From assembly GCF_004785795.1 (NCBI RefSeq), contig NZ_SRRO01000001.1, forward strand, positions 4,340,001 through 4,404,000: a stretch of DNA of 64,000 bases, in the 5' to 3' direction. Both the position numbers and the translations under genes were made by a program. Within the stretch, counting starts at the first letter, position 1. Each line of letters begins with the position of its first letter. Origin of the DNA: Nocardioides eburneiflavus (GTDB lineage: Bacteria > Actinomycetota > Actinomycetes > Propionibacteriales > Nocardioidaceae). A model generated the notes under the pieces. The model was not told the DNA's origin. It saw only the letters and a program-made list of their open reading frames with translations, and ran no database searches. Positions 1,072 through 36,212 of the stretch are shown here, one piece after another.

Positions 1072-1084
1072 TGAACTCAGTTCA
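1072..1084. promoter_or_regulatory. Regulon operator 1 (TGAACTCAGTTCA)
   Basis: Perfect TGAA-N5-TTCA inverted repeat two bases downstream of the -10 of the ADH promoter, so a bound repressor would cover the start of transcription. First of at least sixteen copies in the island. Confidence 0.75.
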
Positions 1085-1086
1085 TG

Positions 1087-1115
1087 AACGTAGGACCCCG
1101 TGCCCGGACCGTCAA
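1087..1115 (-). promoter_or_regulatory. Sigma-70 promoter of the alcohol dehydrogenase
   Basis: On the minus strand the -35 is TTGACG (1115-1110), the spacer is 17 bp and the -10 is TACGTT (1092-1087). Operator 1 follows immediately. The same arrangement recurs at 1179, 7022 and 24109. Confidence 0.65.
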
Positions 1116-1156
1116 GGCGATGTCGTCGAGCCATCGCCGACACCGGGGGGTCGTGA

Positions 1157-1169
1157 TGAACTGATTTCA
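1157..1169. promoter_or_regulatory. Regulon operator 2 (TGAACTGATTTCA)
   Basis: Perfect TGAA-N5-TTCA repeat in the divergent ADH/importer intergenic region, just upstream of the importer -35 box. Together with operators 1 and 3 it gives three sites within 160 bp. Confidence 0.65.
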
Positions 1170-1178
1170 AACCGGTGA

Positions 1179-1207
1179 TTGACGTCACAGGGCAGGAGTC
1201 CTACGCT
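1179..1207 (+). promoter_or_regulatory. Sigma-70 promoter of the ABC importer operon
   Basis: The -35 is TTGACG (1179-1184), the spacer 17 bp and the -10 TACGCT (1202-1207). Operators flank it on both sides (1157-1169 and 1216-1228). Confidence 0.65.
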
Positions 1208-1215
1208 AACTGAAC

Positions 1216-1228
1216 TGAGATCACTTCA
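1216..1228. promoter_or_regulatory. Regulon operator 3 (TGAGATCACTTCA)
   Basis: One mismatch from TGAA-N5-TTCA. A second, overlapping one-mismatch copy (TGAACTGAGATCA) starts five bases earlier at 1211. Lies between the -10 and the ribosome binding site of the importer gene. Confidence 0.6.
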
Positions 1229-1244: not shown

Positions 1245-2288
1245 ATGACCATCAAGAGTCTGCGACTCGGGGCGCTGGTCACCGGTCTCGCATTGACCCT
1301 CGCCGCCTGCGGGGGAAGCAGCGGCGGCACCCCGAGCGGAGCAGTCGACGGCGGCTGGGACGACGTCGTCGCAGCAGCCGAGAAGGAGGGCAGCGTGATG
1401 CTGTACTCCAGCCACAACCCGGTCAACCTCGAGTCCCTCAAGAAGGCCTTCGAGGCCGAGTACCCCGACATCACCATGGAGTACGTGCGTGGCACCGACG
1501 CGGAGCTGAACCCCAAGGTGGAGGTGGAGAACCAGACCGGGCGCGGCACCGCCGACGTCCACATGGTCACGGACACCAACTGGATCAACAGCGCCGCCGA
1601 GAGCGGCACGTACTCGGCCGAGCTCCTCGGCCCCGAGGTCACCGAGTCCGGAAACTACGACGACGACACGAGCCTGATCGCCGACCGGTTCGTGCTCACC
1701 AGCGTCGCCGTCTTCGCCCTCGGCTGGAACACCGACATCCTGCCCGAGGGGCTGGGCGACGTGACGGACGTGATCAAGCCCGAGCTCAAGGGCAAGATCG
1801 GGATCGTCAACCCGACCGGCATCGCGGTCTACAACGACCTCTACCGGTTCCTCGAGAACACCTACGGCGAGGAGTTCATCGAGGACCTGGCCTCGCTCGA
1901 GCCACGCATCTACCCGAGCTCACTCGGTATCGCCCAGGCCCTGACATCGGGGGAGATCGCGGCGGCCCCGATCGTCAACACCCTCGGCACCGAGAAGGCC
2001 TCCGGCGCACCGGTCGACTGGAAGCTCGCGCCCGAGCCGTGGGGCGCTGCCTGGTACACCCACGTCCTGTCCTCCGCAGCGCACCCGAACGCGGGACAGG
2101 TCCTGGCGGACTTCATGGCCTCCGAGGAGGGACAGACCGCCCTCAGCGCCGGTTACGCGGCTACCCTGCCCGGCATCGAGGGCGCCGTGGCCCAGGCCTC
2201 CGACGTGACGCTGGCGGACCCGTCCGACCTGACGGCGGACGACCTCAAGGCGCGTGAGAGCGACTGGGAGTCGCTGTTCCTCAACTAG
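1245..2288 (+). CDS. Ferric-type ABC transporter substrate-binding lipoprotein
   Basis: Periplasmic-binding lipoprotein of 347 aa. The N terminus is a lipoprotein signal with lipobox LAAC and Cys22 as the lipidated residue. The body resembles the Fe(3+)/AfuA-FutA-type binding proteins (SBP-like/ABC-8 fold), with an early LYSSHN segment typical of that group and a PSSLGIAQAL helix near the end. AAGGAG lies six bases before the ATG at 1245; an in-frame start 22 codons earlier would overlap the operator and is rejected. It heads an importer operon with the ATPase and a fused permease. Related binding proteins also carry phosphonates, polyamines and organic acids, so the family name does not prove iron as ligand. 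Its operator and promoter place it in the catabolic regulon, which suggests it imports the pathway substrate; that is an inference. Confidence 0.88.
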   Translation: MTIKSLRLGALVTGLALTLAACGGSSGGTPSGAVDGGWDDVVAAAEKEGSVMLYSSHNPVNLESLKKAFEAEYPDITMEYVRGTDAELNPKVEVENQTGRGTADVHMVTDTNWINSAAESGTYSAELLGPEVTESGNYDDDTSLIADRFVLTSVAVFALGWNTDILPEGLGDVTDVIKPELKGKIGIVNPTGIAVYNDLYRFLENTYGEEFIEDLASLEPRIYPSSLGIAQALTSGEIAAAPIVNTLGTEKASGAPVDWKLAPEPWGAAWYTHVLSSAAHPNAGQVLADFMASEEGQTALSAGYAATLPGIEGAVAQASDVTLADPSDLTADDLKARESDWESLFLN

Positions 2289-2294
2289 GGAGCG

Positions 2295-2332
2295 ACGCTC
2301 CGGGCACCGTGACCACCAGGTGCCCGGGGCGT
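2295..2332. other. Intercistronic stem-loop between binding protein and ATPase genes
   Basis: A 14-bp stem with one G-T-type mismatch (left arm 2295-2308, right arm 2319-2332) and a 10-base loop. No T-run follows. Such hairpins between binding-protein and ATPase genes commonly raise binding-protein mRNA relative to the rest of the operon; that role is inferred here. Confidence 0.55.
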
Positions 2333-2415
2333 TCCGCCGTGTCGGACCCCCGCCGCCCCGGACCCGCCCCGGGCGCCGACCATCGACCACTCCGAGCCCC
2401 CGAAGGACCCCCACC

Positions 2416-3572
<1,157 letters not shown>

Positions 3573-3576
<4 letters not shown>

Positions 3577-5267
3577 CCTCCCTGGTCCAGCGCCCCCTCG
3601 CGCTCGTCATCGCTGTCGGCTGGAAGGCGCGCCTCGGGTACGCCGTCCTGGTCGCCGCACTCATCTACATGGTCGTGCTCCCGCTCTACCGCCTCCAGTC
3701 GCTCGCGTTCGGCGACGGCGCCCGCGGCTACCGGGCCCAGTACGGTCGCGCCGACATCGGCGAGGTGATCTGGACGACGGTGCAGCTGGCCCTCGCGTCC
3801 GTCGTCATCGCCCTGGTCCTCGGCACCCTTCTCGCGTTTGCGACCAGCCGCCTCCCGCAACGATTCTCCTTCCTGCGGATGGTGCCGGTCCTGCCGATCG
3901 TCATGCCGGCTGTCGCCAACATCGTGGGGTGGGCGTTCCTGCTCTCCCCCGGCCCCGGCTACCTGAACGCCGCGATGCGCCAGCTGCCGTGGTGGGACCA
4001 CCTCGACTCCGGACCCGTCGACGTCTACAGCGCCACCTGGATCATCATCCTGACCGGCTTCGGACTGACGTCGTTCGTCTACCTGTTCGTCAGCGCCGGC
4101 ATGGCCGCGATCAGCGCCGAGCACCTCGAGGCCGCACAGACCAGCGGGTCCTCCACCATCGGTGTCTTCTTCCGCGTGGTGCTCCCGCTGCTGCGGCCGT
4201 CCCTCATCTACGGCGCCGGCGTCGCGCTGCTGCTCGGCCTCGGGCAGTTCACCGGACCGCTGCTCCTGGGCGCCAACACCGGCGTCAAGGTGCTGACCAC
4301 CGAGATGTACCGGCGCGTGTCGGAGTCACCCGCCGACTTCGCCGCAGCGGCGGCCGCCGGTTCCCCCCTCGTCGTCCTCGGCCTGCTCGTGGTCCTGGCG
4401 CAGAAGCTACTGCTGGGCGACCAGACCCGCTTCGTCACCCACGGCGGCAAGGCCTTCAAGTCCACCCCGACCCGCTCGTGGTGGGCCGTCACGTTCGTGG
4501 TCGCGTACGGCGTGGTGGCCCTGCTGCTGCCGCTGGTGGGGCTGGTGCTCGTCTCGTTGATGCCCTACTGGTCGGCCTCGCTGAGCCTGGACCTCTTCAG
4601 CCTGGACAACTTCCGAACGCTCTTCGCCACCCCGGACATCATCGACGCCGTGGTGACCAGCATCGTGGCGGCCTCGGTCGCCGTGGTGTTCTGCGTGCCG
4701 ATCGGCTTCGCCATCGCGAACCTGCTCGTGCGGGGGCGTCGCTACCGCGTGCTGCGGATCGTCGCCGACCTGGTCTCGGCGCTGCCGCTGGGCATTCCCG
4801 CGGTGATCTTCGGCGTCGGGTTCCTGCTGACCTACACGCAGCCGCCGATCATCCTGTACGGCACGCGCACCGTCATCATCCTGGTCTACATCGTGCTGAT
4901 GATCCCGTTCGCCACCCGTCTGCAGATGACCGCGATGCTGGCCCTCGGCGAGACCTACATCGAGGCGTCCGCCACCAGCGGTGCGAACCCGTTGACGACC
5001 AACGTGCGCATCGTGTTCCCCCTCATGCGGCCCGCGATCCTGAGTGCCGTCGCCCTCATGTTCATCCTGCTCACCCACGAGTTCGCGGCGTCACTGCTCG
5101 TCCGGTCGCCCACCACCCAGGTCATGGGCACGCGCCTCTTCGACCTCTGGAGCAACGGCTCCTACCCGCTGGTGGCGGCCATGGCGCTCCTGATGACCGT
5201 GGTCACCGGAGTGGGCGTCGCCGTCGCGATGGTCGTCGGCGGACGCAACGTGCTGGACAACCTCTGA
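3573..5267 (+). CDS. Fused double-domain ABC transporter permease, ferric type
   Basis: Integral membrane permease of 564 aa with two tandem binding-protein-dependent permease domains (about residues 60-290 and 330-560), as in FbpB/SfuB-type iron permeases, where one chain replaces a permease dimer. Each half has about six membrane segments and an EAA-like loop: one near EHLEAAQTSGSS in the first half and one near ETYIEASATSGAN in the second. It starts inside the ATPase stop codon and ends just before a strong bidirectional terminator, so the importer operon has three genes. Ligand unknown. Confidence 0.9.
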
Positions 5268-5325: not shown

Positions 5326-6918
5326 CTACTCGGCCCTCGTGAGCACCACGACCGTGCCGGTCCGGTCGCCGGCGACGTAGACCCGGCCGTCGGGGCCCGC
5401 GTCGATGCCGGCGAACGGCGGGATCGGACCGGGGATCATCTGCGGCAGGCCGTTGAGCACCTCACGGGTGCCTCCTTCGGCTGTGCCGAAGGGCAGGTCC
5501 GTCGCGACCGGAACGAGGTCGCCTCCGTCGAGGGGTACGGCGATCACGCGCGCGCTGCCGACCTCGCACACCAGGACCAGCTCGTCGACGACGGTCACGC
5601 CCTGGGGGGAACGCAGCCCCGACGCGAGGACCGCCCGCGTGCCGTCGGCCCCGATCCGCTCGAGGGTCCCGGCCACCTCGTCGGTGACCACGACCGCGTC
5701 GTCCGGACCGACCGCGACGCCCGCCGGTCGTTGCAGCCCGGCGGCCAGCACCTCGACCGCACCGGGCGCCGTGAGGCACAGCACGCGGCCACCACCGCCG
5801 TCCGTCACGAGGACCCGTCCGTCGGACGTCGAGGCGACGTCGAGCACGGTGTCGCCGAGCCCCTCTGCCCACACCTCGGCCTGCGTCCACGCGCCCGCAG
5901 GGTGCTTGGTCACCGTGCCGAGGTTGTTGGTCACGAGCATCGCGGCGCCGCCGTCGGCCGAGGCGACGGCGCGGGCGTACCCGGGGAACCCGGGGTCGGT
6001 GATCTTGTCGGTACGCGCCAACGTGCCGTCGTACGACAGGAGGGCCGCGCCGAGCCCGTCGGCGATGCAGACGCCGACATCGGTGGCGGCCAGTCCGTAG
6101 GGCGCCATCAGGCCCGGGGCGAGAAGCTGGCGCAGTCCCGTCCCGTCCACCTCGTGGACGGACCCGTCGATGTAGTAGGAGACGAACGTCCGACCGTCCG
6201 GGAGCAGGTCGAGGTTGTCCATCCCGGGACGCCCCGTGCGGTGGACCGTGACGACGTCCCGCGTGGCGGTGTCGATGGCCACCACGTCGCCGGATCCACC
6301 GAGTCCGACGTGGACGAGGCCGTCGGGGCCGGTGCGGCACGAGCACGGAGCGGCCAGGCCATCGACGACGACCTCGACCGGTCCCCCGTCGATGGACACC
6401 CGGACCACCTGCCCGGCGAAGGGAAGGGCGCTGTAGAGGTGACGGTCGGGACCGACGCACATCCCGTTGGGGCCGGCGATCCCGTCGGCCAGGAGCACGC
6501 GTGGGCGGTCGTCGCGGAAGACCTCGTAGATGGACCCGCTCGGGAGGAACTCCGTGACGAAGATCCGGTCCTCGAAGACGGTGATCCCGTTGGCGCCCTC
6601 GACACCGTCCTCGATGACGCGGTAGGCGCCGTCCGCCAGCTCGGTCACCCGGGCGTTCATGCACTCGGCGACGTACAGCCGGCCCTCGCTGTCGAAGTCG
6701 AGGTCGTCCGGGCTCACGATCGCGCTGCCGCGCGGCGAGACGACCATCAGCTCGCCGGTGTCGATGTCGATCCGGGCCACCTCGCTGCCGAAGGCGGACG
6801 CGCAGTAGAGCGCGCCGTCGGGGCCGAAGCGGAGGCCGTTGGCCCCGGCGAGGCTACGGGGCTGGGTCTGGTCGACGAGGCGCCACCCGGTGTGGGCGGT
6901 CGGCTGGTCCGATGTCAT
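5326..6918 (-). CDS. SMP-30/gluconolactonase-like beta-propeller protein
   Basis: Protein of 530 aa built of about a dozen short repeats of the type GPDG-x-LY-V or GPDD-x-V-V, as in SMP-30/gluconolactonase/NHL propellers. At 530 aa it is nearly twice the usual 290-300 aa, which fits two propellers or one large one. No signal peptide or membrane segment is visible. Family members include Ca2+-dependent lactonases and strictosidine-synthase-like proteins, so lactone hydrolysis is a reasonable but unproven guess. It is a single-gene unit with its own promoter (TTGACG-17-TAGTTT) and regulon operator at 6977-6989. Confidence 0.75.
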   Translation of the reverse strand: MTSDQPTAHTGWRLVDQTQPRSLAGANGLRFGPDGALYCASAFGSEVARIDIDTGELMVVSPRGSAIVSPDDLDFDSEGRLYVAECMNARVTELADGAYRVIEDGVEGANGITVFEDRIFVTEFLPSGSIYEVFRDDRPRVLLADGIAGPNGMCVGPDRHLYSALPFAGQVVRVSIDGGPVEVVVDGLAAPCSCRTGPDGLVHVGLGGSGDVVAIDTATRDVVTVHRTGRPGMDNLDLLPDGRTFVSYYIDGSVHEVDGTGLRQLLAPGLMAPYGLAATDVGVCIADGLGAALLSYDGTLARTDKITDPGFPGYARAVASADGGAAMLVTNNLGTVTKHPAGAWTQAEVWAEGLGDTVLDVASTSDGRVLVTDGGGGRVLCLTAPGAVEVLAAGLQRPAGVAVGPDDAVVVTDEVAGTLERIGADGTRAVLASGLRSPQGVTVVDELVLVCEVGSARVIAVPLDGGDLVPVATDLPFGTAEGGTREVLNGLPQMIPGPIPPFAGIDAGPDGRVYVAGDRTGTVVVLTRAE

Positions 6919-6976
6919 CAGGACGCCTTTCAGGAGGAGAGCTGCTCGGGCCCGCGGCCCTGCCTCTCAATTGACA

Positions 6977-6989
6977 TGAAGTCATTTCA
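6977..6989. promoter_or_regulatory. Regulon operator 4 (TGAAGTCATTTCA)
   Basis: Perfect TGAA-N5-TTCA repeat four bases downstream of the -10 of the beta-propeller gene promoter. Confidence 0.75.
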
Positions 6990-6993
6990 GGTG

Positions 6994-7022
6994 AAACTAG
7001 CCACACCGGACGTCGCCGTCAA
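6994..7022 (-). promoter_or_regulatory. Sigma-70 promoter of the beta-propeller gene
   Basis: On the minus strand the -35 is TTGACG (7022-7017), the spacer 17 bp and the -10 TAGTTT (6999-6994), followed by operator 4. It lies between the stop of the crotonase gene and the beta-propeller gene. Confidence 0.65.
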
Positions 7023-7041
7023 CGGCTGGTCCAGGGCAACC

Positions 7042-7794
7042 TCATCCTCGGACGAAGGCACGGACGAGCGTCTGCGCCTCCTCGCCCCGCGCCATCTCAG
7101 AGATCGTCCTGGCTTCCTCGGCCCCGACGTCGACCCGGCTCGACTCCCAGCCTGCCCGCAGCAGCCGGCGCACCTGGCCCAGCGCGCCGGACGGACCGTC
7201 CGCCATCGCTGTCGCGAGCTCCCAGGCCCGCACCTCGGGGTCCGGAGCCAGGTCGGTGACCAGCCCCCACTCCAGCGCCTGGGCGGCCGTCGCGGCGCGG
7301 CCGGACAGCGCGAAGCGCAGGGCCCGCTGCTGGCCGATCGCCCGGGGCAGGAGGAAGGAGACCCCGCAGTCGGGAGTGAGCCCGATCGCGGGATAGGCGA
7401 ACACGAAGGACGTCGCGGGATCTGCCACGACCACGTCGCACGAGAGCATGACGGCGAGCCCGGCGCCGGCCACAGCACCGTGCACGGCGGCAACCACGGG
7501 CTTCTCGACCTCGGAGAGCGCCCGGACAGCGGCATCGGCCTCGCTCGCGAGCTCGTGCAGGTACGCCGCGGGGTCGGCGGCGGCCGCGAAGGACGCCACG
7601 TCCCCGCCCGCGCAGAACCGGCTCCCCGCGCCGCTCACGAGCAGCGCACGGACGGCCGGGTCGGCGCCCGCCTCCTCGACGGCCGACCGCAGGGCGCGCG
7701 CGGTGGGCAGGTCGAGGGAGTTGGCCGCCTCGGGCCGCTCGAGCCGGAGGTGACCCACGCCGGCGGCGACACGGAGGCTGACCGTGGACGCCAC
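7042..7794 (-). CDS. Enoyl-CoA hydratase/isomerase (crotonase family)
   Basis: Crotonase of 250 aa. The oxyanion-hole segments are visible as GSRFCAGGDV and HGAVAGAGLAV. The second active-site region reads GLTPDCGVSFLLPR, close to the PaaG-type isomerases, where Asp replaces the catalytic Glu of true hydratases, so double-bond isomerisation is as likely as hydration. The start is a GTG at 7794, one base after the thiolase stop and seven bases after AGGAGGG; longer frames would run into the thiolase. It forms a two-gene unit with the thiolase upstream and would act in beta-oxidation. Confidence 0.85.
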   Translation of the reverse strand: MASTVSLRVAAGVGHLRLERPEAANSLDLPTARALRSAVEEAGADPAVRALLVSGAGSRFCAGGDVASFAAAADPAAYLHELASEADAAVRALSEVEKPVVAAVHGAVAGAGLAVMLSCDVVVADPATSFVFAYPAIGLTPDCGVSFLLPRAIGQQRALRFALSGRAATAAQALEWGLVTDLAPDPEVRAWELATAMADGPSGALGQVRRLLRAGWESSRVDVGAEEARTISEMARGEEAQTLVRAFVRG

Positions 7795-7795
7795 G

Positions 7796-8968
7796 TCAGA
7801 CCCTCCTGAAGAGGGCGGCGAGTGCCTGGCCGCCGCCGATGCACATCGTGACCACGCCCAGCTCGAGGTCGCGTCGCACCATGTCCTTGGCGACGCGCAG
7901 CGTGAGGATGGCACCGGTGGCCCCGACCGGGTGACCGAGGGCGATCGCTCCGCCGTAGGGGTTGACCCGGTCCGGGTCGAGCCCGGCGTCCCGCACGACG
8001 GCGACGGCCTGCGAGGCGAAGGCCTCGTTGAGCTCGATGGTGCCGATGTCGGACGGTCGGGTTCCGGTCCGCTCGAAGAGCGACCGCAACGCGAGGACCG
8101 GCGCGTAGCCCATCAGCTCGGGCTCCATCGCTGCCGTCGCGACGGCTTCGAGGCAGACGAGGCCGGCGAGCCCGCGCTCGGCCGCTGCGGACTCGCGGGC
8201 GAGCACGAGTGCGGCGGCACCGTCATTGATGCCCGACGCGTTCCCCGCCGTGACCGACCCGTTCCGCTGGAAGGCCGGACGCAGCGCAGCCAGGGTCTCC
8301 ACCGTCGTCTCGGGCTTGGGGTGCTCGTCGCGGTCCGCGGTGAACGGGCGACGCCCTCCCACCTCGACCGGGACGATCTCCTCGGCGAACGCAGCCTGCG
8401 CCGCCGCGGTGGCGGCGCGACGCTGGGACTCGGCGGCGAACTCGTCCTGCTCCGTGCGGGACACGGCGTACCTTTCCGCCACGTTCTCGGCAGTGACACC
8501 CATGTGGATGCCGTGGAAGGGGTCGGTCAGCATCATCACCGTGCCGTCACTGAGCGTACGGTCCCCCAACCGGTAGCCGTTGCGCGCGCCGAAGTCGTAG
8601 AACGGCATCCGGCTCATCGACTCGTCCCCGCCCGCGAGGGTGATGTCGAGGTCGTTCCACCGCATCTCCATCGCGGCCGACCAGACGGCCTGCAGGCCGG
8701 AGCCGCACAGGCGGTTGACCGTGTACGCCGGTACGGCGGCGGGCAGGCCGGCGGCGACCGCGACGCGTCGGGCGTTGTAGGCGTCGGCGCCCACCTGGCC
8801 GATGCAGCCCATGACGACCTCGGAGACGTCCGATCCGCCGACGCCCGCGCGAGCGAGCGCGGCGCGCACGGCTGTGGCGCCCAGCTCGAACCCGGGAACG
8901 TCCGAGAACATCCCGCCGAAGCTGCCCACTGGCGTCCGGGCGCCGTCGACGACGACGATCCTCTCCAT
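7796..8968 (-). CDS. Acetyl-CoA acyltransferase (thiolase)
   Basis: Degradative thiolase of 390 aa that would cleave 3-ketoacyl-CoA. The catalytic triad is intact: nucleophile Cys88 in NRLCGSG, His346 in GHPVGATGA and Cys376 in CIGGGQ. Start ATG 8968 follows GAGGAGC at suitable spacing; an in-frame start seven codons earlier lacks this site. The gene is divergent from an SDR gene, with one regulon operator (8992-9004) between them. A minus-strand promoter TTGTGG-17-TAGCGT can be read at 9040-9012. The crotonase gene follows directly. Confidence 0.92.
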   Translation of the reverse strand: MERIVVVDGARTPVGSFGGMFSDVPGFELGATAVRAALARAGVGGSDVSEVVMGCIGQVGADAYNARRVAVAAGLPAAVPAYTVNRLCGSGLQAVWSAAMEMRWNDLDITLAGGDESMSRMPFYDFGARNGYRLGDRTLSDGTVMMLTDPFHGIHMGVTAENVAERYAVSRTEQDEFAAESQRRAATAAAQAAFAEEIVPVEVGGRRPFTADRDEHPKPETTVETLAALRPAFQRNGSVTAGNASGINDGAAALVLARESAAAERGLAGLVCLEAVATAAMEPELMGYAPVLALRSLFERTGTRPSDIGTIELNEAFASQAVAVVRDAGLDPDRVNPYGGAIALGHPVGATGAILTLRVAKDMVRRDLELGVVTMCIGGGQALAALFRRV

Positions 8969-8991
8969 CTTGGAGCTCCTCGCACTCAACT

Positions 8992-9004
8992 TGAATTCAC
9001 TTCA
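8992..9004. promoter_or_regulatory. Regulon operator 5 (TGAATTCACTTCA)
   Basis: Perfect TGAA-N5-TTCA repeat in the 88-bp divergent region between the thiolase (minus) and SDR (plus) genes. A single site here could control both directions. A TACGCT box for the plus strand lies at 9011-9016, overlapping the minus-strand TAGCGT box. Confidence 0.75.
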
Positions 9005-11208: not shown

Positions 11209-11225
11209 GGGAGCTCCGATCAAGA

Positions 11226-11950: not shown

Positions 11951-11974
11951 ACTCAGGAAGCACCGACACCCTGT

Positions 11975-24701: not shown

Positions 24702-24702
24702 G

Positions 24703-25651: not shown

Positions 25652-25688
25652 CCCCGGCCTGACTCCCACCCGAGAACGGAGACGACGC

Positions 25689-29715: not shown

Positions 29716-29739
29716 GTCCCGCACCTCCTTCTGCGTTCC

Positions 29740-29752
29740 TGAAGTGAGTTTG
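29740..29752. promoter_or_regulatory. Regulon operator 13 (TGAAGTGAGTTTG)
   Basis: One perfect arm and a two-mismatch arm, in the 79-bp divergent region between the MFS gene and the flavoprotein gene. Confidence 0.55.
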
Positions 29753-29794: not shown

Positions 29795-31114
29795 GTGAAC
29801 GACCCGGACCTGATCGTGGTCGGCGCCGGCATGGCCGGCCTCACCGCAGCCGCTCGCGCCACCCGCGCAGGCAGCCGTGTGCTCGTGGTGGAGTCGGCCG
29901 ACGACGTCGGCGGATCCGCCCGCCTTGCCGGCTACGCCTGGACCGCGCCGAGCCGCGAGGTCATCGACGCCGTCGTCCCCGACGGCGACGCCTCGCTGCG
30001 GTACGCGCTGGTCGACCGCTTCGCCGACGGGATCGACTGGATCCGGACTACCGGGGTCGAGGTCCGCGACCCCGTCGCGATCCTGGGGTTCGGCCTCGGC
30101 CACCAGTTCGACACCAACCAGTACGTCGACACCTGCCGCCGCCTCGTCGTGGAGGGCAGCGGCGAGGTCCGTACGCGCACCCGCACACGCCGGCTCCTCG
30201 TCTCGGAGGGCCGCGTCACCGGCGTCGAGCTCGAGGCTCCGGACGGGTCGACGGAGGAGGTGCACGCCGCGTGGACCATGCTGGCCACCGGCGGCTTCCA
30301 GGGCGACCCCGACCTGCTCGCCGAGAAGGTGCACCCTGCTGCCGGCCGGATGCAGCTGCGCTCGAACCCCCACAGCACGGGCGCGGGCTACCGCCTCGCC
30401 ACCGCAGCAGGAGCAGCCACCGGCACCGACGACGCCGGCTTCTACGGCCACCTCGTGCCCACCGGCATCCCCTTCGCCGATCCTGCCGACTTCGTCGACC
30501 TCTCGCTCTACTACAGCGAGCACGCCCTCCTGCTCAACCTGCGCAACGAGCGCTTCGTCGACGAGACCCTCGGCGACCACCTCACGACCATGGCCCTGCT
30601 CGCACAGCCGGAGTCACGCGGCCTGCTCGTGTGCGACGCCCGGACCCACCGGGAGTGGGTCGTGGGCTCGTACGTCGAAGGGGCGGTGGCGGTCGACAAG
30701 TTCGCCGTGGCGACCCGGCGAGGCGGCCGGACCGGACTCGCCGAGTCGCTGGAGGAGCTGCAGTACCTGCCCGAGGAGTGGGGCTACGACGGCGCCGCGG
30801 TCCGTGCCGCGGTCGAGGCCTTCAACGCCGAGGCCGCGGCGGGCTCGCCGGCACCCGGCCGCACGCACGACACCCGGCCACAGGACGAGGGTCCGTGGTA
30901 CGTCGTGGAGTGCGAACCGGCGATCACCTTCCCCTTCCACGGGGTGCTGATCGACGACCGGGCTCGCGTGCTGGGCACCGACGGGCAACCGGTCCCCGGC
31001 CTGCTGTCGGCCGGGGCGGACACCGGTGGCCTCTACCACAGGGCGTACGCCGGAGGGCTCGCCTCGGCGCTCGTCTTCGGCCTCGCTGCTGCCGACACCG
31101 CCGCCAGCAGCTGA
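29795..31114 (+). CDS. FAD-dependent oxidoreductase (fumarate reductase/KstD-like)
   Basis: Flavoprotein of 439 aa. The N-terminal dinucleotide motif is VVGAGMAGLTAA, followed by GGSARLAG, the ATGGFQGD segment and the substrate-side HSTGAGYRLATAAGA. The C-terminal FAD contact is GLLSAGADTGGLYHRAYAGG. It is in the FAD_binding_2 family with 3-ketosteroid dehydrogenases, fumarate and tricarballylate reductases and bile-acid reductases, so it probably adds or removes a double bond next to a carbonyl. It is shorter than KstD (about 560 aa). GTG start with GGGAGA upstream. Divergent from the MFS gene; converges on an ACAD with a 3-bp gap. Confidence 0.87.
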   Translation: MNDPDLIVVGAGMAGLTAAARATRAGSRVLVVESADDVGGSARLAGYAWTAPSREVIDAVVPDGDASLRYALVDRFADGIDWIRTTGVEVRDPVAILGFGLGHQFDTNQYVDTCRRLVVEGSGEVRTRTRTRRLLVSEGRVTGVELEAPDGSTEEVHAAWTMLATGGFQGDPDLLAEKVHPAAGRMQLRSNPHSTGAGYRLATAAGAATGTDDAGFYGHLVPTGIPFADPADFVDLSLYYSEHALLLNLRNERFVDETLGDHLTTMALLAQPESRGLLVCDARTHREWVVGSYVEGAVAVDKFAVATRRGGRTGLAESLEELQYLPEEWGYDGAAVRAAVEAFNAEAAAGSPAPGRTHDTRPQDEGPWYVVECEPAITFPFHGVLIDDRARVLGTDGQPVPGLLSAGADTGGLYHRAYAGGLASALVFGLAAADTAASS

Positions 31115-31117: not shown

Positions 31118-32233
31118 TCAGACCCCGACCAGGTCGGCGATCGCCGCGCGGTGCTCGCGCGAGCTCCCGAAGACTCCCTCGTCGCCCAGCACCCGACGGA
31201 GGTAGTAGTGGGCCCGGTGCTCCCACGTGAAGCCGATGCCGCCGTGCAGCTGGATGGTCTCGTGGGCCGCGCGGAGGGCGGCGTCCTGACAGACAGCGGC
31301 AGCGACCGAGGCGGCCAGGTCCGCCTCGTGGGGGTCAGCGTCGGAATCGAGCAGGGCGGCCGCATAGCGGGCCGCGGAGAGGGCGCGCTCGCGGTCGACG
31401 AGCACGTCTGCCAGCCGGTGCTTGACAGCCTGGAAGGAACCGATGGCCCGGCCGAACTGCTGGCGCTGCACGACGTACTCACACGTCAGGTCGAGCAGGC
31501 GCGCCGCGATCCCGGCGTGCTCGGCCGCGAGAGCCACCAGCGTCAGACGGCGGAGGTCGGCGATCACGACCTCCGCACGCGGGGCGGCCACCAGCTGCGT
31601 TGCGGGGGCGGAGGCCAACGCGACGTCAGCCTGGCGCCGGGTCAGGTCCACGACGCGTCGAGGAGTGACCGAGCAGTGCTCGCGCGCCACGAGGAACAGG
31701 CCCGGACCGGCGTCGGTCCCGGCCACCACCACCACGTGGTCCGACGACTCCGCCTGCAGCACACCTGCGACCGAGCCAGTGAGCAGCCAGGAGTCCTCGC
31801 CGACCTCTGCATCCAGGCCGGCGGCAAGCGAGACGGTCAGCACCGACTCACCGGACAGGGCCGTGGCGCGCAGGTGCGCGACGCCCGCGGCGTCGTCGGC
31901 TGCCGCGAGGGCCCGGCACCCGAGCACCGCCGAGGCAAGCACCGGCTCGGGCAGCAGCGAGGCACCCGCCTCCTCCAGCACGACCGCGATCTCGCGCACC
32001 CCGAAGCCCGCTCCCCCGAGCGCCTCCGGCACCGCGAGGCCGCCGATCTCGAGCTCGCCGTTGAGCCGGCCCCACAGGTCGGCCGACCAGCCGAGCGCGG
32101 AGTCGGCAGAGGTCCGCACCTGCTCGTGGTCGGCGTGCTTGGCCAGCACCTGGCGCACGATCGAGCGCAGCTCGTCGTGCTCCTCGACCGGCGCCAGGAG
32201 GGCCGGGTCGGACTCTGGCCACGGCTGGGACAT
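31118..32233 (-). CDS. Acyl-CoA dehydrogenase, short divergent type
   Basis: ACAD-family protein of 371 aa, with ALGGAGFGVREIAVVLEEAG in the N-terminal helical domain and a C-terminal AHETIQLHGGIGFTWEHRAHYYLRR region. The central beta domain is loosely conserved and lacks the classical FxxTE(P/A)xxGSD segment, as in the partner subunits of heteromeric actinobacterial ACADs (ChsE1/E2 type). It may therefore need another ACAD of the island as partner; inferred. ATG 32233 has GGAAGGA upstream. Operators at 32256-32273 precede it. Confidence 0.82.
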   Translation of the reverse strand: MSQPWPESDPALLAPVEEHDELRSIVRQVLAKHADHEQVRTSADSALGWSADLWGRLNGELEIGGLAVPEALGGAGFGVREIAVVLEEAGASLLPEPVLASAVLGCRALAAADDAAGVAHLRATALSGESVLTVSLAAGLDAEVGEDSWLLTGSVAGVLQAESSDHVVVVAGTDAGPGLFLVAREHCSVTPRRVVDLTRRQADVALASAPATQLVAAPRAEVVIADLRRLTLVALAAEHAGIAARLLDLTCEYVVQRQQFGRAIGSFQAVKHRLADVLVDRERALSAARYAAALLDSDADPHEADLAASVAAAVCQDAALRAAHETIQLHGGIGFTWEHRAHYYLRRVLGDEGVFGSSREHRAAIADLVGV

Positions 32234-32255
32234 CAGCGTTCCTTCCCACACAATT

Positions 32256-32273
32256 TGACATGAGTTCAGTTCA
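32256..32273. promoter_or_regulatory. Regulon operator 14, two overlapping frames
   Basis: TGACATGAGTTCA (32256-32268) and TGAGTTCAGTTCA (32261-32273) overlap with a 5-base shift, each one mismatch from consensus and both with central T-N-A. The same 5-base stagger is seen at 1211/1216. Upstream of the ACAD gene at 32233. Confidence 0.6.
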
Positions 32274-32304: not shown

Positions 32305-32334
32305 TGGACACCGCTCGCCGGATTGAACTAAGTT
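32305..32334 (+). promoter_or_regulatory. Promoter of the second NTF2-like operon, -10 inside the operator
   Basis: The -35-like TGGACA (32305-32310), an 18-bp spacer and the -10 TAAGTT (32329-32334). The -10 lies inside operator 15 and ends six bases before the ATG at 32341, which suggests a leaderless transcript. Confidence 0.5.
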
Positions 32335-32336
32335 CA
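32324..32336. promoter_or_regulatory. Regulon operator 15 (TGAACTAAGTTCA)
   Basis: Perfect inverted repeat, with even the centre symmetric around A/T. It covers the presumed -10 box and ends four bases before the start codon of the NTF2-like gene, so repression by occlusion is likely. Confidence 0.75.
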
Positions 32337-32340: not shown

Positions 32341-32721
32341 ATGCCCGACGCCGTCACCACTCTCGAGCGCTACTACGCCCTGGTCGACTCCGGCGACCTC
32401 GACGCCGCCATGGAGCTGCTGCACCCCAAGGCGTCGTTCGCGATCCTCCTTCCCGGCGGCGGCGTACGGGGAGACAGCCGCGACGGCATCCGCGCCTACC
32501 TCGAGGGCCGCGGCCCCGTCGTACGACGACACGTCCCGCTGCGCAGCTCGACCGACGGCGACCTCGACTTCGTCTACGGCTCCGTGCTCGAGGACGAGAC
32601 GACCACGACCGGGCACTTCCTGGCCGCGGCGCACGTCGTCGACGGCGTCATCACCCGCTACCAGGTCAGCTTCGACCCGGACCTCACCCTGCTGCCCGCC
32701 ACCGAAGGAGCTCCTGCATGA
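32341..32721 (+). CDS. SnoaL/NTF2-fold protein 4
   Basis: Protein of 126 aa: VTTLERYYALVDSGDLDAAM, LLHPKASFAILLPGG, GIRAYLEGRG, then strands with GHFLAAAHVVDGVITRYQ. This is a compact SnoaL-like fold. There is no ribosome binding site: operator 15 ends at 32336 and the ATG is at 32341, which points to leaderless translation. It is first in a plus-strand operon of NTF2-like, NTF2-like, kinase and ACAD genes. Reaction unknown. Confidence 0.75.
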   Translation: MPDAVTTLERYYALVDSGDLDAAMELLHPKASFAILLPGGGVRGDSRDGIRAYLEGRGPVVRRHVPLRSSTDGDLDFVYGSVLEDETTTTGHFLAAAHVVDGVITRYQVSFDPDLTLLPATEGAPA

Positions 32722-33083
32722 GTGCCACGCCTCTGCTGCGCGACTGGTTCGAGATCATGGACTCGGACACCCCCGAGCGCGTGCTCGACATGATCACCGT
32801 CGACTTCGAGCTGTCCATCCTGTTCGCCACGGCCGACGGTGCGGCGGAGTTCCACGGCGACCGCGCCGGGCTGGTCGGCTACCTCGAGCAGCGCGAGAAG
32901 AGCACCCTGACCCACCACCTGCTGTCGGGCGCCGAGGTCGACGGGACCGAGCTCGCCCTCGGCGAGACCCGGCGGGACGGCACCTTCGAGGCCTCGTTCA
33001 ACGCCACCGCCGCCCTCGTGGACGGTCGCCTGGTCCGACGCCTCCTCATCTGCCGCACCCCGCGTGTCTCCTTCAGCTCGTGA
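32718..33083 (+). CDS. SnoaL/NTF2-fold protein 5
   Basis: Protein of 121 aa with a short NTF2-like layout (LRDWFEIMDSDTPERVLDMI, VDFELSILFATADG, then a strand region ending RRLLICRTPRV). It overlaps the previous gene by ATGA and the kinase gene by GTGA, so the three are translated as a unit. Two consecutive small NTF2-fold proteins may form a heteromer. It is a small protein next to a kinase, as LvaB is in the levulinate system, but no homology to LvaB can be claimed from the sequence. Confidence 0.72.
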   Translation: MSATPLLRDWFEIMDSDTPERVLDMITVDFELSILFATADGAAEFHGDRAGLVGYLEQREKSTLTHHLLSGAEVDGTELALGETRRDGTFEASFNATAALVDGRLVRRLLICRTPRVSFSS

Positions 33084-34093
33084 ACGCCGAGCTGGTGCCC
33101 TGGGACCGGCTGGGTCCCGCCCTCGTCGAGGCCACCGGTGACGAGCGCTGGCTCCACGGCCGGCCGGAGCTGATCGCTGGCGGGAAGTCCAACCTGACGT
33201 TCCTGCTCCGCAGCGAGGCCGGGGAGCTGGTCCTGCGCCGGCCTCCGACCGGCGAGCTGCTGCCGAGCGCCCACGACATGGCCCGCGAGGCCCGCGTGCA
33301 ACGCGCCCTCGCGCCGACCGACGTGCCCACCGCGCGCGTGGTGCTGGCCGACGGCGGCGACCTGCTCGGCCTGCCCTGCTACGTGATGGAGAAGGCGGCA
33401 GGTCACGTGGTGCGCGGCACCCTGCCGGCGGGGTACGCGGACGACCCTGCGCAGCGGCACGCGATCGGGGCGGCCTTCGCGGACACGCTCGCGGCGCTCC
33501 ACGCGGTCGACCCGGAGGCAGTCGGCCTGTCCGACTACGGGCGACCGGAGGGCTTCATGGCCCGGCAGGTGCGCCGGTGGACAGGCCAGTGGGAGGCCTC
33601 ACGCAGCCGCGACGTGCCCGAGATCGACGAGCTCGGCCGCCGCCTCGCGGCCACCGTCCCGGCCCAGCAGCGCTCCACGATCGTGCACGGCGACTACCGC
33701 CTCGACAACGTCGTCCTGCACCCTGACGAGCCCGGCCGGATCACTGCCGTCCTCGACTGGGAGCTCTCCACCCTCGGCGACCCCCTGACAGACCTGGCCC
33801 TCCTCCTGCTGTTCTGGCGCGAGGAGGGCGAGCCGGGGCTCAGTCTCATCCCCGGCGTCTCGCACCTGCCGGGCTTCCCCGGTCGGGCCGAGCTGCTCGA
33901 GCGGTACGCCGCCGCGTCCGGGCTGGACGTGTCCGAGATGGACTGGTACCTCGCGTTCGCCCACTTCAAGTTCGCCGTCATCGCCCAGGGCGTCTCGGCC
34001 CGCTCCCGCGCCGGCGCGATGGGCGGGCAGGACTTCGGCGACCTCGACGCCGAGATCCTCGGTCTCGGCCGCCGCGGCCTCGCCCTCGTCTGA
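33080..34093 (+). CDS. APH-family phosphotransferase paired with ACAD10/11-like dehydrogenase
   Basis: Kinase-fold protein of 337 aa. The nucleotide-binding start is AGGKSNLTFLL, the catalytic loop is VHGDYRLDNVV and the metal-binding motif VLDWELSTLGDPLTDLA, which is the ACAD10 kinase-domain and LvaA pattern. It would phosphorylate a hydroxyacyl-CoA. The start is a GTG overlapping the preceding stop; the ACAD10/11-like gene follows after 34 bp. Paralogous in role to 17361-18341 but more typical of the family. Confidence 0.87.
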   Translation: MNAELVPWDRLGPALVEATGDERWLHGRPELIAGGKSNLTFLLRSEAGELVLRRPPTGELLPSAHDMAREARVQRALAPTDVPTARVVLADGGDLLGLPCYVMEKAAGHVVRGTLPAGYADDPAQRHAIGAAFADTLAALHAVDPEAVGLSDYGRPEGFMARQVRRWTGQWEASRSRDVPEIDELGRRLAATVPAQQRSTIVHGDYRLDNVVLHPDEPGRITAVLDWELSTLGDPLTDLALLLLFWREEGEPGLSLIPGVSHLPGFPGRAELLERYAAASGLDVSEMDWYLAFAHFKFAVIAQGVSARSRAGAMGGQDFGDLDAEILGLGRRGLALV

Positions 34094-34127
34094 TCCCCGC
34101 CCCTCGCACGTCCACCAGGAGCACCCC

Positions 34128-35333
34128 ATGGACCTCTCCCTCTCCCCCCGCGCCGCCGAGACCGGCGAGAAGATGTGGGACTTCATGCGCACCCACGTCC
34201 TCCCTGCCGAGCGGGAGTGGACGTCGTACCTCCGCGAGCACGGCCCGCACGAGCACCCACCCGTCATGGAGGAGCTCAAGCGCGAGGCACGCAGCCGGGG
34301 CCTCTGGAACCTCTTCCTGCCGCGCGTCTCGGGACTCAGCAACGTGGAGTACGCGACCGTCGCGGAGATCTCCGGCTGGTCGCCCGTCATCGCCCCTGAG
34401 GCGATCAACTGCCAGGCCCCCGACACCGGCAACATGGAGACGATGGAGCTCTTCGCCACGCCCGCCCAGCGGGCGCAGTGGCTCGAGCCGCTCCTCGCGG
34501 GCGAGATCCGGTCCGCCTTCGCGATGACCGAGCCGGCCGTCGCCTCGTCGGATGCCACGAACATCACGACGACGATCACGCGCGACGGCGACGAGTACGT
34601 CATCAACGGCCGCAAGTGGTTCATCACCGGCGCCGCCGACGAGCGCTGCTCGATCTTCATCGTCATGGGCAAGACCGACCTCGAGGCCGAGACCCACCGC
34701 CAGCAGTCGATGGTGCTCGTCCCGCGCGACACCCCGGGCATGACCATCGAGCGGCACCTGCCGATCTTCGGCTACCAGGACCAGCACGGGCACTCGGAGA
34801 TCGTGCTCGAGGACGTGCGCGTGCCCGTCACCAACCTCCTGGCCGAGGAGGGTGACGGGTTCGTCATCTCGCAGGCGCGCCTCGGGCCCGGCCGCATCCA
34901 CCACGCGATGCGGGCCATCGGCATGGCCGAGCGCGCCCTGGCGCTGATGGTCGACCGGGCGAAGTCCCGCGTCGCCTTCGGCCAGCACCTTGCGGACTTC
35001 GCCAACGTGCAGGACCTCATCGCCCAGTCGCGCATCGACATCGACCAGGCCCGCCTCCATGTGCTGGACGCAGCCTGGAAGATCGACCAGCACGGCGCCA
35101 GGGGCGCGCGAAGCGAGATCGCCGCGATCAAGGTGTCCGCCCCGGCCATGGCCACGCAGGTGATCGACCGTGCCATCGAGGTGTTCGGCGGCGCCGGGGT
35201 CTCCGACGACACCCCGCTCGCCTACTTCTACGCCTGGGCCCGGGTGCTGCGCATCGTGGACGGGCCGGACGCAGTCCACCGGCGGACCATCGCTCGCATG
35301 GAGATGAAGCGGACACCGCCCTACGTCGGCTGA
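34128..35333 (+). CDS. Acyl-CoA dehydrogenase, ACAD10/11-like
   Basis: Flavoprotein of 401 aa. It has FAMTEPAVASSDATNIT, NGRKWFITGAAD, RQQSMVLVPRDTPGM, GPGRIHHAMRAIGMAERAL and FGGAGVSDDTPLAYF/DGPDAVHRR, all close to the ACAD10/11 and LvaC branch. Paralog of 16092-17318. With the kinase before it, the pair could eliminate phosphate from a phosphoacyl-CoA and hand an enoyl-CoA to a hydratase; this chemistry is known for ACAD10/11 and LvaC and is inferred here. A GGAGCACCCC stretch lies before the ATG. Last gene of the operator-15 operon. Confidence 0.9.
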   Translation: MDLSLSPRAAETGEKMWDFMRTHVLPAEREWTSYLREHGPHEHPPVMEELKREARSRGLWNLFLPRVSGLSNVEYATVAEISGWSPVIAPEAINCQAPDTGNMETMELFATPAQRAQWLEPLLAGEIRSAFAMTEPAVASSDATNITTTITRDGDEYVINGRKWFITGAADERCSIFIVMGKTDLEAETHRQQSMVLVPRDTPGMTIERHLPIFGYQDQHGHSEIVLEDVRVPVTNLLAEEGDGFVISQARLGPGRIHHAMRAIGMAERALALMVDRAKSRVAFGQHLADFANVQDLIAQSRIDIDQARLHVLDAAWKIDQHGARGARSEIAAIKVSAPAMATQVIDRAIEVFGGAGVSDDTPLAYFYAWARVLRIVDGPDAVHRRTIARMEMKRTPPYVG

Positions 35334-35371
35334 CCCGTGCCGACGTCGGGCGGTGCCCTCATGGTGAGGAG

Positions 35372-36139
35372 CTAGGCGACGCTCGCCCCGCCGTCGACGT
35401 ACAGCGTCTGGCCGGTGGTGTACGACGCCTCGTCGCTGGCCAGGAAGGTGACGGCCGCCGCGATGTCGTCTGGGACCCCGACGCGCTTGACGGGCACGGC
35501 CTCGGCGTTGAGCCGGCGGAACTCCTCGACGTCGAGGCGCAGCCGGGCGGCGGTCGCATCCGTCATCTCGGTGGCCACGAAGCCGGGCGCCACCGCGTTG
35601 ACGTTGATGCCGAACGGGCCGAGCTCGATGGCGAGGGTGCGCGTCAGTCCCTGGATCCCCATCTTGGCGGCGGAGTAGTTGGCCTGCCCGCGGTTTCCGA
35701 GCGCGGAGATGCTCGACAGGTTGACGACCTTGCCGTACTGCTGGGCGACGAAGTGTCCCTGGACGGCCTTGGTCATGAGGAACGCGCCCTTGAGGTGGAC
35801 GTCCATCACCAGGTCCCAGTCGGTCTCGGTCATCTTGAACAGCAGGTTGTCGCGGGTGATGCCCGCGTTGTTGACGAGGACGTGCACCCCACCGAGCGTC
35901 GTCTCGATCCGGTCGACGGCACCCGCCACCGCTCCGGCGTCCGAGACGTCGGCCCCGACCCCGACCGCCCCGACGCCCGCGACCGACGACACCCGGGCGG
36001 CGGCCTCCGCAGCGGCGCCCTCGTCCAGGTCGACGATCGCCACCGCCGCGCCCTCCTCGGCGAACCTCGTCGCGGTGGCGAACCCGATCCCTCGGGCACC
36101 CCCCGTGACAACGACGACACGTCCCTCGAAACGACCCAT
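35372..36139 (-). CDS. FabG/PhaB-like 3-oxoacyl reductase (SDR)
   Basis: SDR of 255 aa: TGGARGIG, DLDE after strand 2, NNAG, Ser in NLSSIS, YSAAK and the C-terminal TGQTLYVDGGASVA. NNAGITRDNLLFKM is the FabG/PhaB signature region, so interconversion of 3-hydroxyacyl and 3-oxoacyl thioesters is the best guess. ATG 36139 has AGGAGC upstream; a start 14 codons earlier is less likely. Divergent from the MaoC gene with one operator between. Confidence 0.9.
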   Translation of the reverse strand: MGRFEGRVVVVTGGARGIGFATATRFAEEGAAVAIVDLDEGAAAEAAARVSSVAGVGAVGVGADVSDAGAVAGAVDRIETTLGGVHVLVNNAGITRDNLLFKMTETDWDLVMDVHLKGAFLMTKAVQGHFVAQQYGKVVNLSSISALGNRGQANYSAAKMGIQGLTRTLAIELGPFGINVNAVAPGFVATEMTDATAARLRLDVEEFRRLNAEAVPVKRVGVPDDIAAAVTFLASDEASYTTGQTLYVDGGASVA

Positions 36140-36199
36140 GTCCTGCTCCTCTCCATCCGTGGTGGTTGCGGTGGACCGCACCCGTCAGGCATCCTGACC

Positions 36200-36212
36200 T
36201 GAATTCACTTTA
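36200..36212. promoter_or_regulatory. Regulon operator 16 (TGAATTCACTTTA)
   Basis: One mismatch from the consensus, between the divergent FabG-like and MaoC genes and next to the GGAGA ribosome binding site of the latter. Rightmost copy found in the window. Confidence 0.65.

What the first reader, a model, noticed from the sequence alone, without database searches (positions are those of the whole stretch)
1072..36212. Sixteen copies of one 13-bp inverted repeat mark a catabolic regulon
TGAA-N-T-N-A-N-TTCA, or a close variant, occurs at 1072, 1157, 1216, 6977, 8992, 11226, 11938, 21950, 21966, 24036, 24137, 24154, 29740, 32256/32261, 32324 and 36200. Nearly every operon start from 44 to 36680 has at least one, all are intergenic, and I found none to the right of 36212. 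I do not recognise the motif as that of KstR, KstR2 or another named regulator. The island is likely one inducible pathway whose boundary is set by the motif.
Basis: seen in the sequence. Interest (0 to 1): 0.85.

Follow-up and report, generated by a model that had tools for sequence, protein, structure and literature searches.

The report
Local TetR regulon with ladder-like operator
A bacterium, by its relatives an actinobacterium, keeps a 36-kb set of breakdown genes under one shared DNA switch sequence, most likely read by the TetR-type repressor inside the set, and the switch and core genes recur together in many other actinobacteria, pointing to a widespread breakdown pathway whose substrate is not yet known.

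Summary
All 8 perfect TGAANTNANTTCA sites of the 5.0-Mb genome lie in this window. Sixteen sites in 10 intergenic gaps head 16 gene starts; the 12 internal starts tested have none. The 13-mer is part of a larger operator of TGA/TCA boxes every 5 bp, consensus TRAACTGAACTSAGTTCAGTTYA. The likely reader is the TetR at 11281-11901: of 80 named loci retrieved with that protein 77 have a site near its gene, against 0 of 19 distant TetRs; in eight genomes 31 of 33 perfect sites lie within about 42 kb of it; of 35 genus relatives without it two have one site each. The genes include a CoA ligase, two ACAD11/LvaAC-type kinase + dehydrogenase pairs for 4-hydroxyacyl-CoA, and two ACADs matching the two subunits of one known enzyme. 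Best reading: a self-regulated TetR repressor, binding as one or two offset dimers, controls catabolism of a bulky cyclic acid. Binding, inducer and substrate are inferred. KstR, KstR2 and Lcin1 operators have no match in the window; SRTF1 is not excluded by sequence.

The parts
1072..1084 (.). operator site, perfect 13-mer, 21 bp upstream of g01 start (1051 -)
1157..1169 (.). operator site, perfect 13-mer, upstream of g02
1211..1228 (.). operator site, perfect 18-mer TGANNTGANNTCANNTCA, just before the RBS of g02
6972..6989 (.). operator site, perfect 18-mer inside a 6-box ladder, upstream of the NHL-repeat gene
8992..9004 (.). operator site between divergent thiolase and SDR genes
11226..11238 (.). 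operator site (2 mismatches) 18 bp upstream of the EthD gene
11938..11955 (.). operator site upstream of the TetR gene itself
21945..21962 (.). operator site (listed as 21950) upstream of the ECH-headed core operon
21966..21978 (.). operator site, perfect 13-mer, upstream of the ECH-headed core operon; 29 of 30 usable loci have a site before the orthologous gene
24031..24053 (.). operator site, 5-box ladder, upstream of the OYE gene
24137..24149 (.). operator site (1 mismatch) between OYE and SnoaL genes
24154..24166 (.). operator site, perfect 13-mer, upstream of the SnoaL-SnoaL-ALDH genes
29740..29752 (.). operator site (2 mismatches) between divergent MFS and FAD-dehydrogenase genes
32256..32273 (.). 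operator site, perfect 18-mer, upstream of ACAD g26
32324..32336 (.). operator site, perfect 13-mer, ends 4 bases before the g27 start codon
36195..36212 (.). operator site between divergent SDR and MaoC genes; abuts the MaoC RBS; right edge of the regulon
11281..11901 (-). TetR-family regulator (TetR_N + TetR_C_24), proposed reader of the sites
11975..13534 (-). AMP-forming acyl-CoA ligase (RBS-supported start 13474)
13479..16095 (-). Zn alcohol dehydrogenase and two SDRs of the core operon
16092..17318 (-). g14, ACAD11-type dehydrogenase (R626, R637 and catalytic Asp kept; H634 is Tyr)
17361..18341 (-). g15, APH-fold kinase; best solved hit 3dxp_A, then the kinase domain of ACAD11 (8v3v); motif HGDYRLGN
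18338..19537 (-). g16, ACAD; best solved hit is Tcur3483 (6wy9_A, 6wy8_B), one subunit of a two-subunit ACAD
19534..21077 (-). thiolase plus ChsH2-type OB-fold protein
21132..21923 (-). g18, enoyl-CoA hydratase/isomerase, head of the core operon
22031..24019 (-). OYE/BaiCD-like flavoenzyme (below the NCBIfam cut-offs)
24213..27248 (+). two SnoaL-like proteins and an aldehyde dehydrogenase
27275..29724 (-). SDR and MFS transporter
29795..31114 (+). FAD_binding_2 dehydrogenase/reductase (fumarate-reductase/KstD superfamily)
31118..32251 (-). g26, ACAD; best solved hit is Tcur3481 (6wy8_A), partner subunit of Tcur3483 (RBS-supported start 32233)
32341..35333 (+). SnoaL-like protein, small unknown protein, APH kinase g29 and ACAD11-type g30 (key residues kept)
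35372..36181 (-). SDR
36222..36680 (+). MaoC-like hydratase, last gene of the regulon
44..1051 (-). Zn-dependent dehydrogenase, first gene of the regulon
1245..5267 (+). ABC importer: solute-binding protein, ATPase, permease
5326..8989 (-). NHL/SMP-30-like protein (5326-6918), enoyl-CoA hydratase (7042-7914) and thiolase (RBS-supported start 8968)
9057..9812 (+). SDR
9845..11223 (-). metallo-beta-lactamase-fold hydrolase and EthD protein

Best explanation
The sites are operators of the TetR-family protein at 11281-11901, which represses itself and all operons of a 36-kb catabolic island. One dimer reads TGA-N7-TCA (13 bp, half-sites one DNA turn apart). Many sites carry a second such pair offset by 5 bp (18-mer) or more (23-mer and longer), so a second dimer can sit on the opposite face, as in dimer-of-dimers TetR proteins. 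The nearest site of each operon head ends about 4 to 55 bp before the start codon, where a bound repressor would block RNA polymerase. A CoA thioester or other intermediate of the pathway probably releases the repressor. The genes import a compound, join it to CoA and degrade it by beta-oxidation-like steps, including two kinase + ACAD11-type modules that process 4-hydroxyacyl-CoA and a two-subunit ACAD of a kind recalled to act on bulky ring substrates. Shown: site anatomy, confinement, operon-head placement, conservation with the TetR across genera. Inferred: binding, repression, inducer, substrate.
For: Confinement: 8 of 8 perfect 13-mers and 4 of 4 perfect 18-mers of the genome are in the island. 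Placement: 16 operon-head starts have a site scoring 19 or more within 220 bp upstream, the 12 internal starts tested score 2.9 or less (the matrix was built from these same window sites, so this contrast is descriptive for the window). Test with that matrix on 80 other loci: 77 of 80 have a site above 12 near the TetR gene, 0 of 19 distant TetRs do (best 9.0; 19 of 28 control loci were usable); Markov null 30 of 5,862 segments. Orthologous operon head ECH: 29 of 30; promoters of eight core internal genes (g07, g10, g12-g17): 0 of 495 above 14, 1 of 495 above 10. Twelve other genomes: 31 of 33 perfect sites near the TetR in the eight with matched contigs. Presence/absence: of 58 genomes searched, own one included, only G000 and G025 have a close TetR and only they have clustered sites; 50 have none, 6 have 1 to 3 scattered. 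Recognition helix IGQTALYHYFESK is the same in 32 of 33 aligned family members (one T-to-P); of four G025 homologs the one with a changed helix (IGEATLYYYYESK) is the one without a site within 400 bp. Ladder. Enzymes.
Against: No binding or expression data exist here. Upstream of the TetR itself the site is often weak: 39 of 80 loci exceed score 14 (73 of 80 exceed 10), and 3 of 80 (L073, L149, L151) have none above 12 near the TetR. Placement before accessory genes varies between loci (score above 14): EthD 29 of 67, SBP 15 of 30, SDR g06 12 of 64, OYE 1 of 7, SnoaL4 g20 0 of 2, FAD dehydrogenase 4 of 13, ACAD g26 2 of 4, MaoC 4 of 8; and some genes internal here have sites elsewhere (ZnADH g11 3 of 32, SDR g23 2 of 9, g28 1 of 35). 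G025 homolog 3 keeps the helix but has only a score-15.4 site. The 80 loci include many close Streptomyces and Nocardia, so they are not 80 independent cases. g14 lacks the His of the ACAD11 HCMR motif. No structure model was obtained. Listing the accessory-gene results led me to lower this confidence from 0.85 to 0.82.
Confidence: 0.82

Rival explanations
1. The sites belong to another regulator encoded elsewhere; the TetR merely travels with the cluster and is one of its targets.
For: No binding data; the TetR's own site is weaker than others.
Against: The TetR is the only regulator among the island ORFs scanned and was the bait that retrieved site-bearing loci in 19 genera; genus relatives without a close TetR lack clustered sites; a homolog with an altered recognition helix lacks a site; L098 and L112, where no other window gene was recognised in the flank, still have an 18-mer near the TetR.
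Confidence: 0.09
2. The regulator is an activator, or has both roles, at these sites rather than a repressor.
For: Some promoters carry two or three sites.
Against: The nearest site ends about 4 to 55 bp before the start codons; before g32 it abuts the RBS and before g27 it ends 4 bases from the start. Known TetR proteins of similar catabolic clusters are repressors (FadRSa, PMC6449355, abstract and passages read; KstR and KstR2, PMC7807495, passages read).
Confidence: 0.07
3. The functional unit is just the 13-bp palindrome with one dimer; the 5-bp ladder is a by-product of overlapping or decaying duplicate sites. (This rival concerns the operator only and is compatible with the TetR reading.)
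For: Some perfect 13-mers (8992, 21966) have no further exact box at 5-bp steps on either side; the outer box is present in 31% of readings only.
Against: Outer boxes are enriched (31%, against about 2-8% at most other outside offsets and 13% at the neighbouring one) and the outer arm T-R-A-A is conserved across genera; runs of 4 to 6 exact boxes occur.
Confidence: 0.25

Closest known systems
FadRSa (TetR family, Sulfolobus acidocaldarius; PMC6449355, abstract and passages read)
   Same: One TetR protein binds few genomic sites and represses a 30-kb, 23-ORF cluster with beta-oxidation enzymes; single-dimer and dimer-of-dimers modes depending on operator; released by acyl-CoA.
   Different: Archaeal; different genes; operator letters not compared; here binding and ligand are untested.
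KstR2 / KstR (steroid regulators of actinobacteria)
   Same: TetR family; KstR2 structures 4w1u and 4w97 are among the nearest solved relatives by sequence; catabolic regulons.
   Different: Operators differ: the recalled KstR (TNNAACNNGTTNNA) and KstR2 (ANCAAGNNCTTGNT) patterns have 0 exact matches in the window.
SRTF1 and motif Lcin1 of Nocardioides/Pimelobacter simplex (PMC7062782, PMC7807495, PMC7593942, passages read)
   Same: SRTF1 is a TetR with a 22-bp palindromic site in a steroid-responsive island of a related organism.
   Different: SRTF1 shares a divergent promoter with a ketosteroid-dehydrogenase gene; the P. simplex homolog found here follows a ligase gene on the same strand. Lcin1 (TCCCGGTSACCGGGA) has 0 matches in the window with up to 1 mismatch. 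The SRTF1 site letters and protein sequence were not seen, so its exclusion rests on gene context only.
QacR, CprB, CgmR (dimer-of-dimers TetR proteins; PMC4150764, passages read)
   Same: Two dimers per operator of 22-32 bp; on opposite sides of the DNA in CprB.
   Different: No 5-bp TGA/TCA ladder of up to six boxes is mentioned in the passages read; stoichiometry here unknown.
RolR of Corynebacterium glutamicum (PMC3086911, two passages read)
   Same: TetR of a catabolic cluster; the printed DNA probe holds GTTCAGTTCA and a TGAAC...GTTCA pair.
   Different: Where RolR binds in that probe is not told in the passages read; resorcinol is its inducer; similarity may be chance. A lead, not a match.
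lva operon of Pseudomonas putida and mammalian ACAD10/ACAD11 (PMC11342911, PMC12440821, passages read)
   Same: Kinase + atypical ACAD pair for 4-hydroxyacyl-CoA; g14 and g30 match ACAD11 at E 3e-122 and 4e-125.
   Different: Two pairs, as separate genes, within a much larger island.

Membership tests
TetR family regulator | N-terminal TetR_N HTH domain above cut-off | tested here: met
   PF00440 41.5 bits (cut-off 24), PF17932 71.6 bits (cut-off 26.4)
TetR family regulator | binds operators near its own gene | not testable with these tools
   association only: 77 of 80 loci have a site near the gene
FadR (Bacillus type, NF053878) | NCBIfam equivalog score 200 | tested here: not met
   45.9 bits
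SACE_7040 family regulator (NF050111) | NCBIfam equivalog score 250 | tested here: not met
   47.7 bits
KstR / KstR2 regulon | operator consensus in the island (recalled consensus) | tested here: not met
   0 exact matches in the window
Lcin1 (lithocholate) regulon | operator TCCCGGTSACCGGGA | tested here: not met
   0 matches in the window with up to 1 mismatch
SRTF1 | gene divergent from a ketosteroid dehydrogenase; 22-bp palindrome | tested here: inconclusive
   context differs in L074; SRTF1 sequence and site letters not seen
dimer-of-dimers TetR operators (QacR type) | two dimers bound per operator | not testable with these tools
   two offset TGA-N7-TCA pairs in the 18-mer are compatible
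ACAD10/11-LvaC type dehydrogenase (g30) | catalytic Asp plus R626, H634, R637 | tested here: met
   all four kept in the alignment to 8v3u; residue numbers placed by counting, chain numbering shifted by one
ACAD10/11-LvaC type dehydrogenase (g14) | catalytic Asp plus R626, H634, R637 | tested here: not met
   Asp, R626, R637 kept, H634 is Tyr; overall match to ACAD11 E 3e-122
ACAD10/11-LvaA type kinase | APH fold with catalytic Asp and following Asn (HGDxxxxN) | tested here: met
   g15 HGDYRLGN, g29 HGDYRLDN, Pfam APH; g15 also hits 8v3u/8v3v; g29 was not compared with solved structures
two-subunit ACAD (6wy8 / 4x28 type) | two different subunits, each best matching a different subunit of the known enzyme | tested here: met
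   g16 to Tcur3483 and 4x28_A, g26 to Tcur3481 and 4x28_D; assembly untested
KshA-dependent steroid ring degradation | KshA_C oxygenase in the genome | tested here: not met
   PF19298 0 matches in G000; weak negative, since it rang in 1 of 14 control genomes and above cut-off in none

The most novel reading that the evidence does not exclude
The operator is a true ladder: TGA/TCA boxes every half-turn let two or more TetR dimers stack on alternating faces, setting graded repression by box number, and the regulon marks an undescribed, widely shared actinobacterial pathway, with no oxygenase among the island genes scanned, for a steroid- or terpenoid-like acid that passes through 4-hydroxyacyl-CoA steps.
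Probability: 0.3. Interest if true: 0.65.

Novelty: new member of a known kind. Interest (0 to 1): 0.5.

Why it matters
The 5-bp ladder is a simple handle on how TetR dimers pack on overlapping sites. The gene set joins ACAD11-type 4-hydroxyacyl-CoA modules with a two-subunit ACAD, a combination worth tracing to a substrate. The sensor could serve as a biosensor part once its ligand is known.

Tried and rejected
KstR and KstR2 operators: recalled consensus patterns, no match in the window. Lcin1: no match. SRTF1: compared through papers and gene context only. Chance or ordinary palindrome: rejected by whole-genome counts and controls. Reading the ORF 2281-3459 (-) as a gene: rejected, it is antisense to the ABC ATPase at 2254-3576 (+).

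Reversed, non-complemented sequence as a null for the score matrix: dropped, because it gave many hits (354 above 12 against 641 forward in the 80 loci), probably since reversed real sites still score; replaced by order-2 Markov resampling, 32 above 12. A threshold from random segments of the same loci was also dropped: those loci are full of real sites, so its 99% point was 27.2 and only 12 of 80 family loci passed it. Rows dropped before the counts: matches under 45% identity or under 60% of the query, and starts closer than 230 bases to the locus end; match starts stand in for true start codons.

Literature: motif letters were searched, gene set and regulon, in the open-access library only. 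One search gave one paper, on a herpesvirus by its title. One search found 46 papers holding at least 2 of 5 terms, 10 listed; of these only RolR concerns a TetR regulator of catabolism by its title. No description of this operator or cluster was found in these searches.

So no model and no fold search.

Full report
What is there. The window comes from a 5.0-Mb genome (99.95% complete, two contigs) with 71% G+C in the window; its nearest named relatives by the TetR are Pimelobacter and Nocardioides, so I call it an actinobacterium. The 13-mer TGAANTNANTTCA occurs exactly 8 times in the whole genome, always inside window positions 1072-32336, with 0 matches of the reversed pattern. With one mismatch allowed there are 18 matches, 15 of them in the window, and 2 of the reversed pattern. 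Inside the window 15 matches stand against 0.09 expected. Sixteen distinct sites lie in 10 intergenic gaps.

The true unit. Sites at 1211, 6972, 24036 and 32256 are perfect 18-mers TGANNTGANNTCANNTCA, and these are the only four perfect ones in the genome; with one mismatch 5 of 7 further matches are in the window, with two mismatches 5 of 26; the reversed pattern gives 9 matches with up to two mismatches. Across the 80 related loci plus the window, 163 non-redundant readings (of 242) of the 13-mer with up to one mismatch give the symmetric consensus TRAACTGAACTSAGTTCAGTTYA. A T-x-A box stands at 5 bp outside the 13-mer in 31% of readings, against 2-8% at most other outside offsets and 13% at the next one out (195 readings with a longer flank for redundancy removal). 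In the window exact TGA/TCA runs of three or more start at 16 positions at step 5 and at 0 to 4 positions at the other steps tested; 9 of the 16 sites have such runs, 7 have degenerate boxes. I read this as one dimer per TGA-N7-TCA pair (half-sites one turn apart) and a possible second dimer offset by half a turn; that step is inference.

Placement. Site scores within 220 bp upstream are 19.0 or more for all 16 operon-head starts and 2.9 or less for the 12 internal starts tested; not every internal gene was tested. The matrix was built from the window's own sites, so this is descriptive for the window; the tests below on other genomes do not share those sites. The nearest site of each head ends about 4 to 55 bp before the start codon (from the coordinates).

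Who reads it. The only regulator among the island ORFs scanned is the TetR protein at 11281-11901. Those loci hold 343 matches of the 18-mer and 13-mer patterns with up to one mismatch (overlaps counted in both) against 10 for the reversed patterns. Using the window matrix, 77 of 80 have a site above 12 within about 250 bp of the TetR start or end; 0 of 19 usable control loci (28 fetched) around TetRs of about 30% identity do, best 9.0. In Markov-resampled loci 30 of 5,862 segments exceed 12; one locus of 80, L112, has no site cluster above 14.

Specificity elsewhere. In 12 whole genomes reached through these loci there are 44 perfect 13-mers against 3 of the reversed pattern. In the eight genomes where locus and contig coordinates agree, 31 of 33 lie within about 42 kb of the TetR. 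The other four genomes hold 11: one lies about 22 kb from the TetR in G067 and one does not; two of four in G069 and the one in G066 may lie on the TetR contig (not verified); none of four in G065 lies in its fetched locus. Among 58 genomes (own one included), 50 have no perfect site; G000 has 8, G025 has 4, six others have 1 to 3 scattered ones. G000 and G025 are also the only ones with a close homolog of the TetR; the next best match is 31% identical. Of the 35 other genomes of the genus two have one site each.

Conserved promoters. Before the orthologous ECH gene, head of the core operon, 29 of 30 usable loci have a site above 14. Before g07, g10 and g12-g17 none of 495 promoters does, and 1 of 495 exceeds 10. 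Before the TetR 39 of 80 exceed 14 and 73 of 80 exceed 10; EthD 29 of 67; SBP 15 of 30; SDR g06 12 of 64. Accessory genes vary: MaoC 4 of 8, FAD dehydrogenase 4 of 13, OYE 1 of 7, ACAD g26 2 of 4, g27 3 of 3, ALDH 2 of 2, g20 0 of 2, ZnADH g01 1 of 1; and genes internal here but not always elsewhere, g11 3 of 32, g23 2 of 9, g28 1 of 35, g29 0 of 20, g30 0 of 3. Many loci are close relatives, so these counts overstate independence.

A natural contrast. G025 has four TetR homologs. Three keep the recognition helix IGQTALYHYFESK and have sites scoring 21.6, 16.1 and 15.4 within 400 bp; the fourth reads IGEATLYYYYESK and has none (best 5.1). This is one case, not a statistic.

The pathway. Nine core genes (ECH, thiolase, ACAD g16, APH, ACAD g14, SDR g12, ligase, TetR, EthD) have a match of 45% identity or more in 59 of 80 loci; some loci are cut by contig ends; three have the TetR alone. 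Gene order is similar, with changes, where I read it (output cut in its middle). Three plasmid records hold the TetR; the cluster was read on one, from Rhodococcus qingshengii. g14 and g30 match ACAD11 far better than other ACADs; g15 matches 3dxp and the kinase domain of ACAD11. The residues that PMC12440821 reports as needed (passages read) are all present in g30; g14 has Tyr for the His. g16 and g26, in different operons joined by the motif, best match the two subunits Tcur3483 and Tcur3481 of one solved ACAD and then chains A and D of 4x28. That these come from Thermomonospora curvata and act on steroid-type CoA esters is recalled (one search found no paper). OYE, FAD_binding_2 and ChsH2-type OB-fold genes fit a bulky ring substrate. 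No oxygenase family appeared among the proteins scanned, and KshA_C has no match in the genome (weak negative). The substrate is unknown.

Verdict. The finding is real and well supported as a local regulon of a TetR group that I did not find described in the searches named. In kind it is a familiar arrangement (compare FadRSa), with an operator of unusual regularity. Binding, direction of regulation, inducer and substrate remain to be tested.

Noticed in passing
   Followed up: partly
window 2254-3576 (+): The antisense reading (2281-3459 -) of an ABC ATPase gives matches of 41-55% identity in other genomes; an easy source of false gene calls.
   Followed up: yes
L153 and plasmid hits H1-H3: The TetR occurs on large plasmids of Rhodococcus (H2, H3) and Streptomyces (H1), and the catabolic cluster was read on the Rhodococcus qingshengii one; with a close TetR in 2 of 37 genomes of this genus this suggests horizontal spread.
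   Followed up: no
L098, L106, L112: TetR homologs without any other window gene recognised at 45% identity in the fetched flank (L098 is a short flank); L098 and L112 have an 18-mer site just before the TetR.
   Followed up: partly
window 16092-17318 (-): ACAD11-type g14 has Tyr in place of the His of the HCMR motif that mammalian work found essential, while g30 keeps it.
   Followed up: partly
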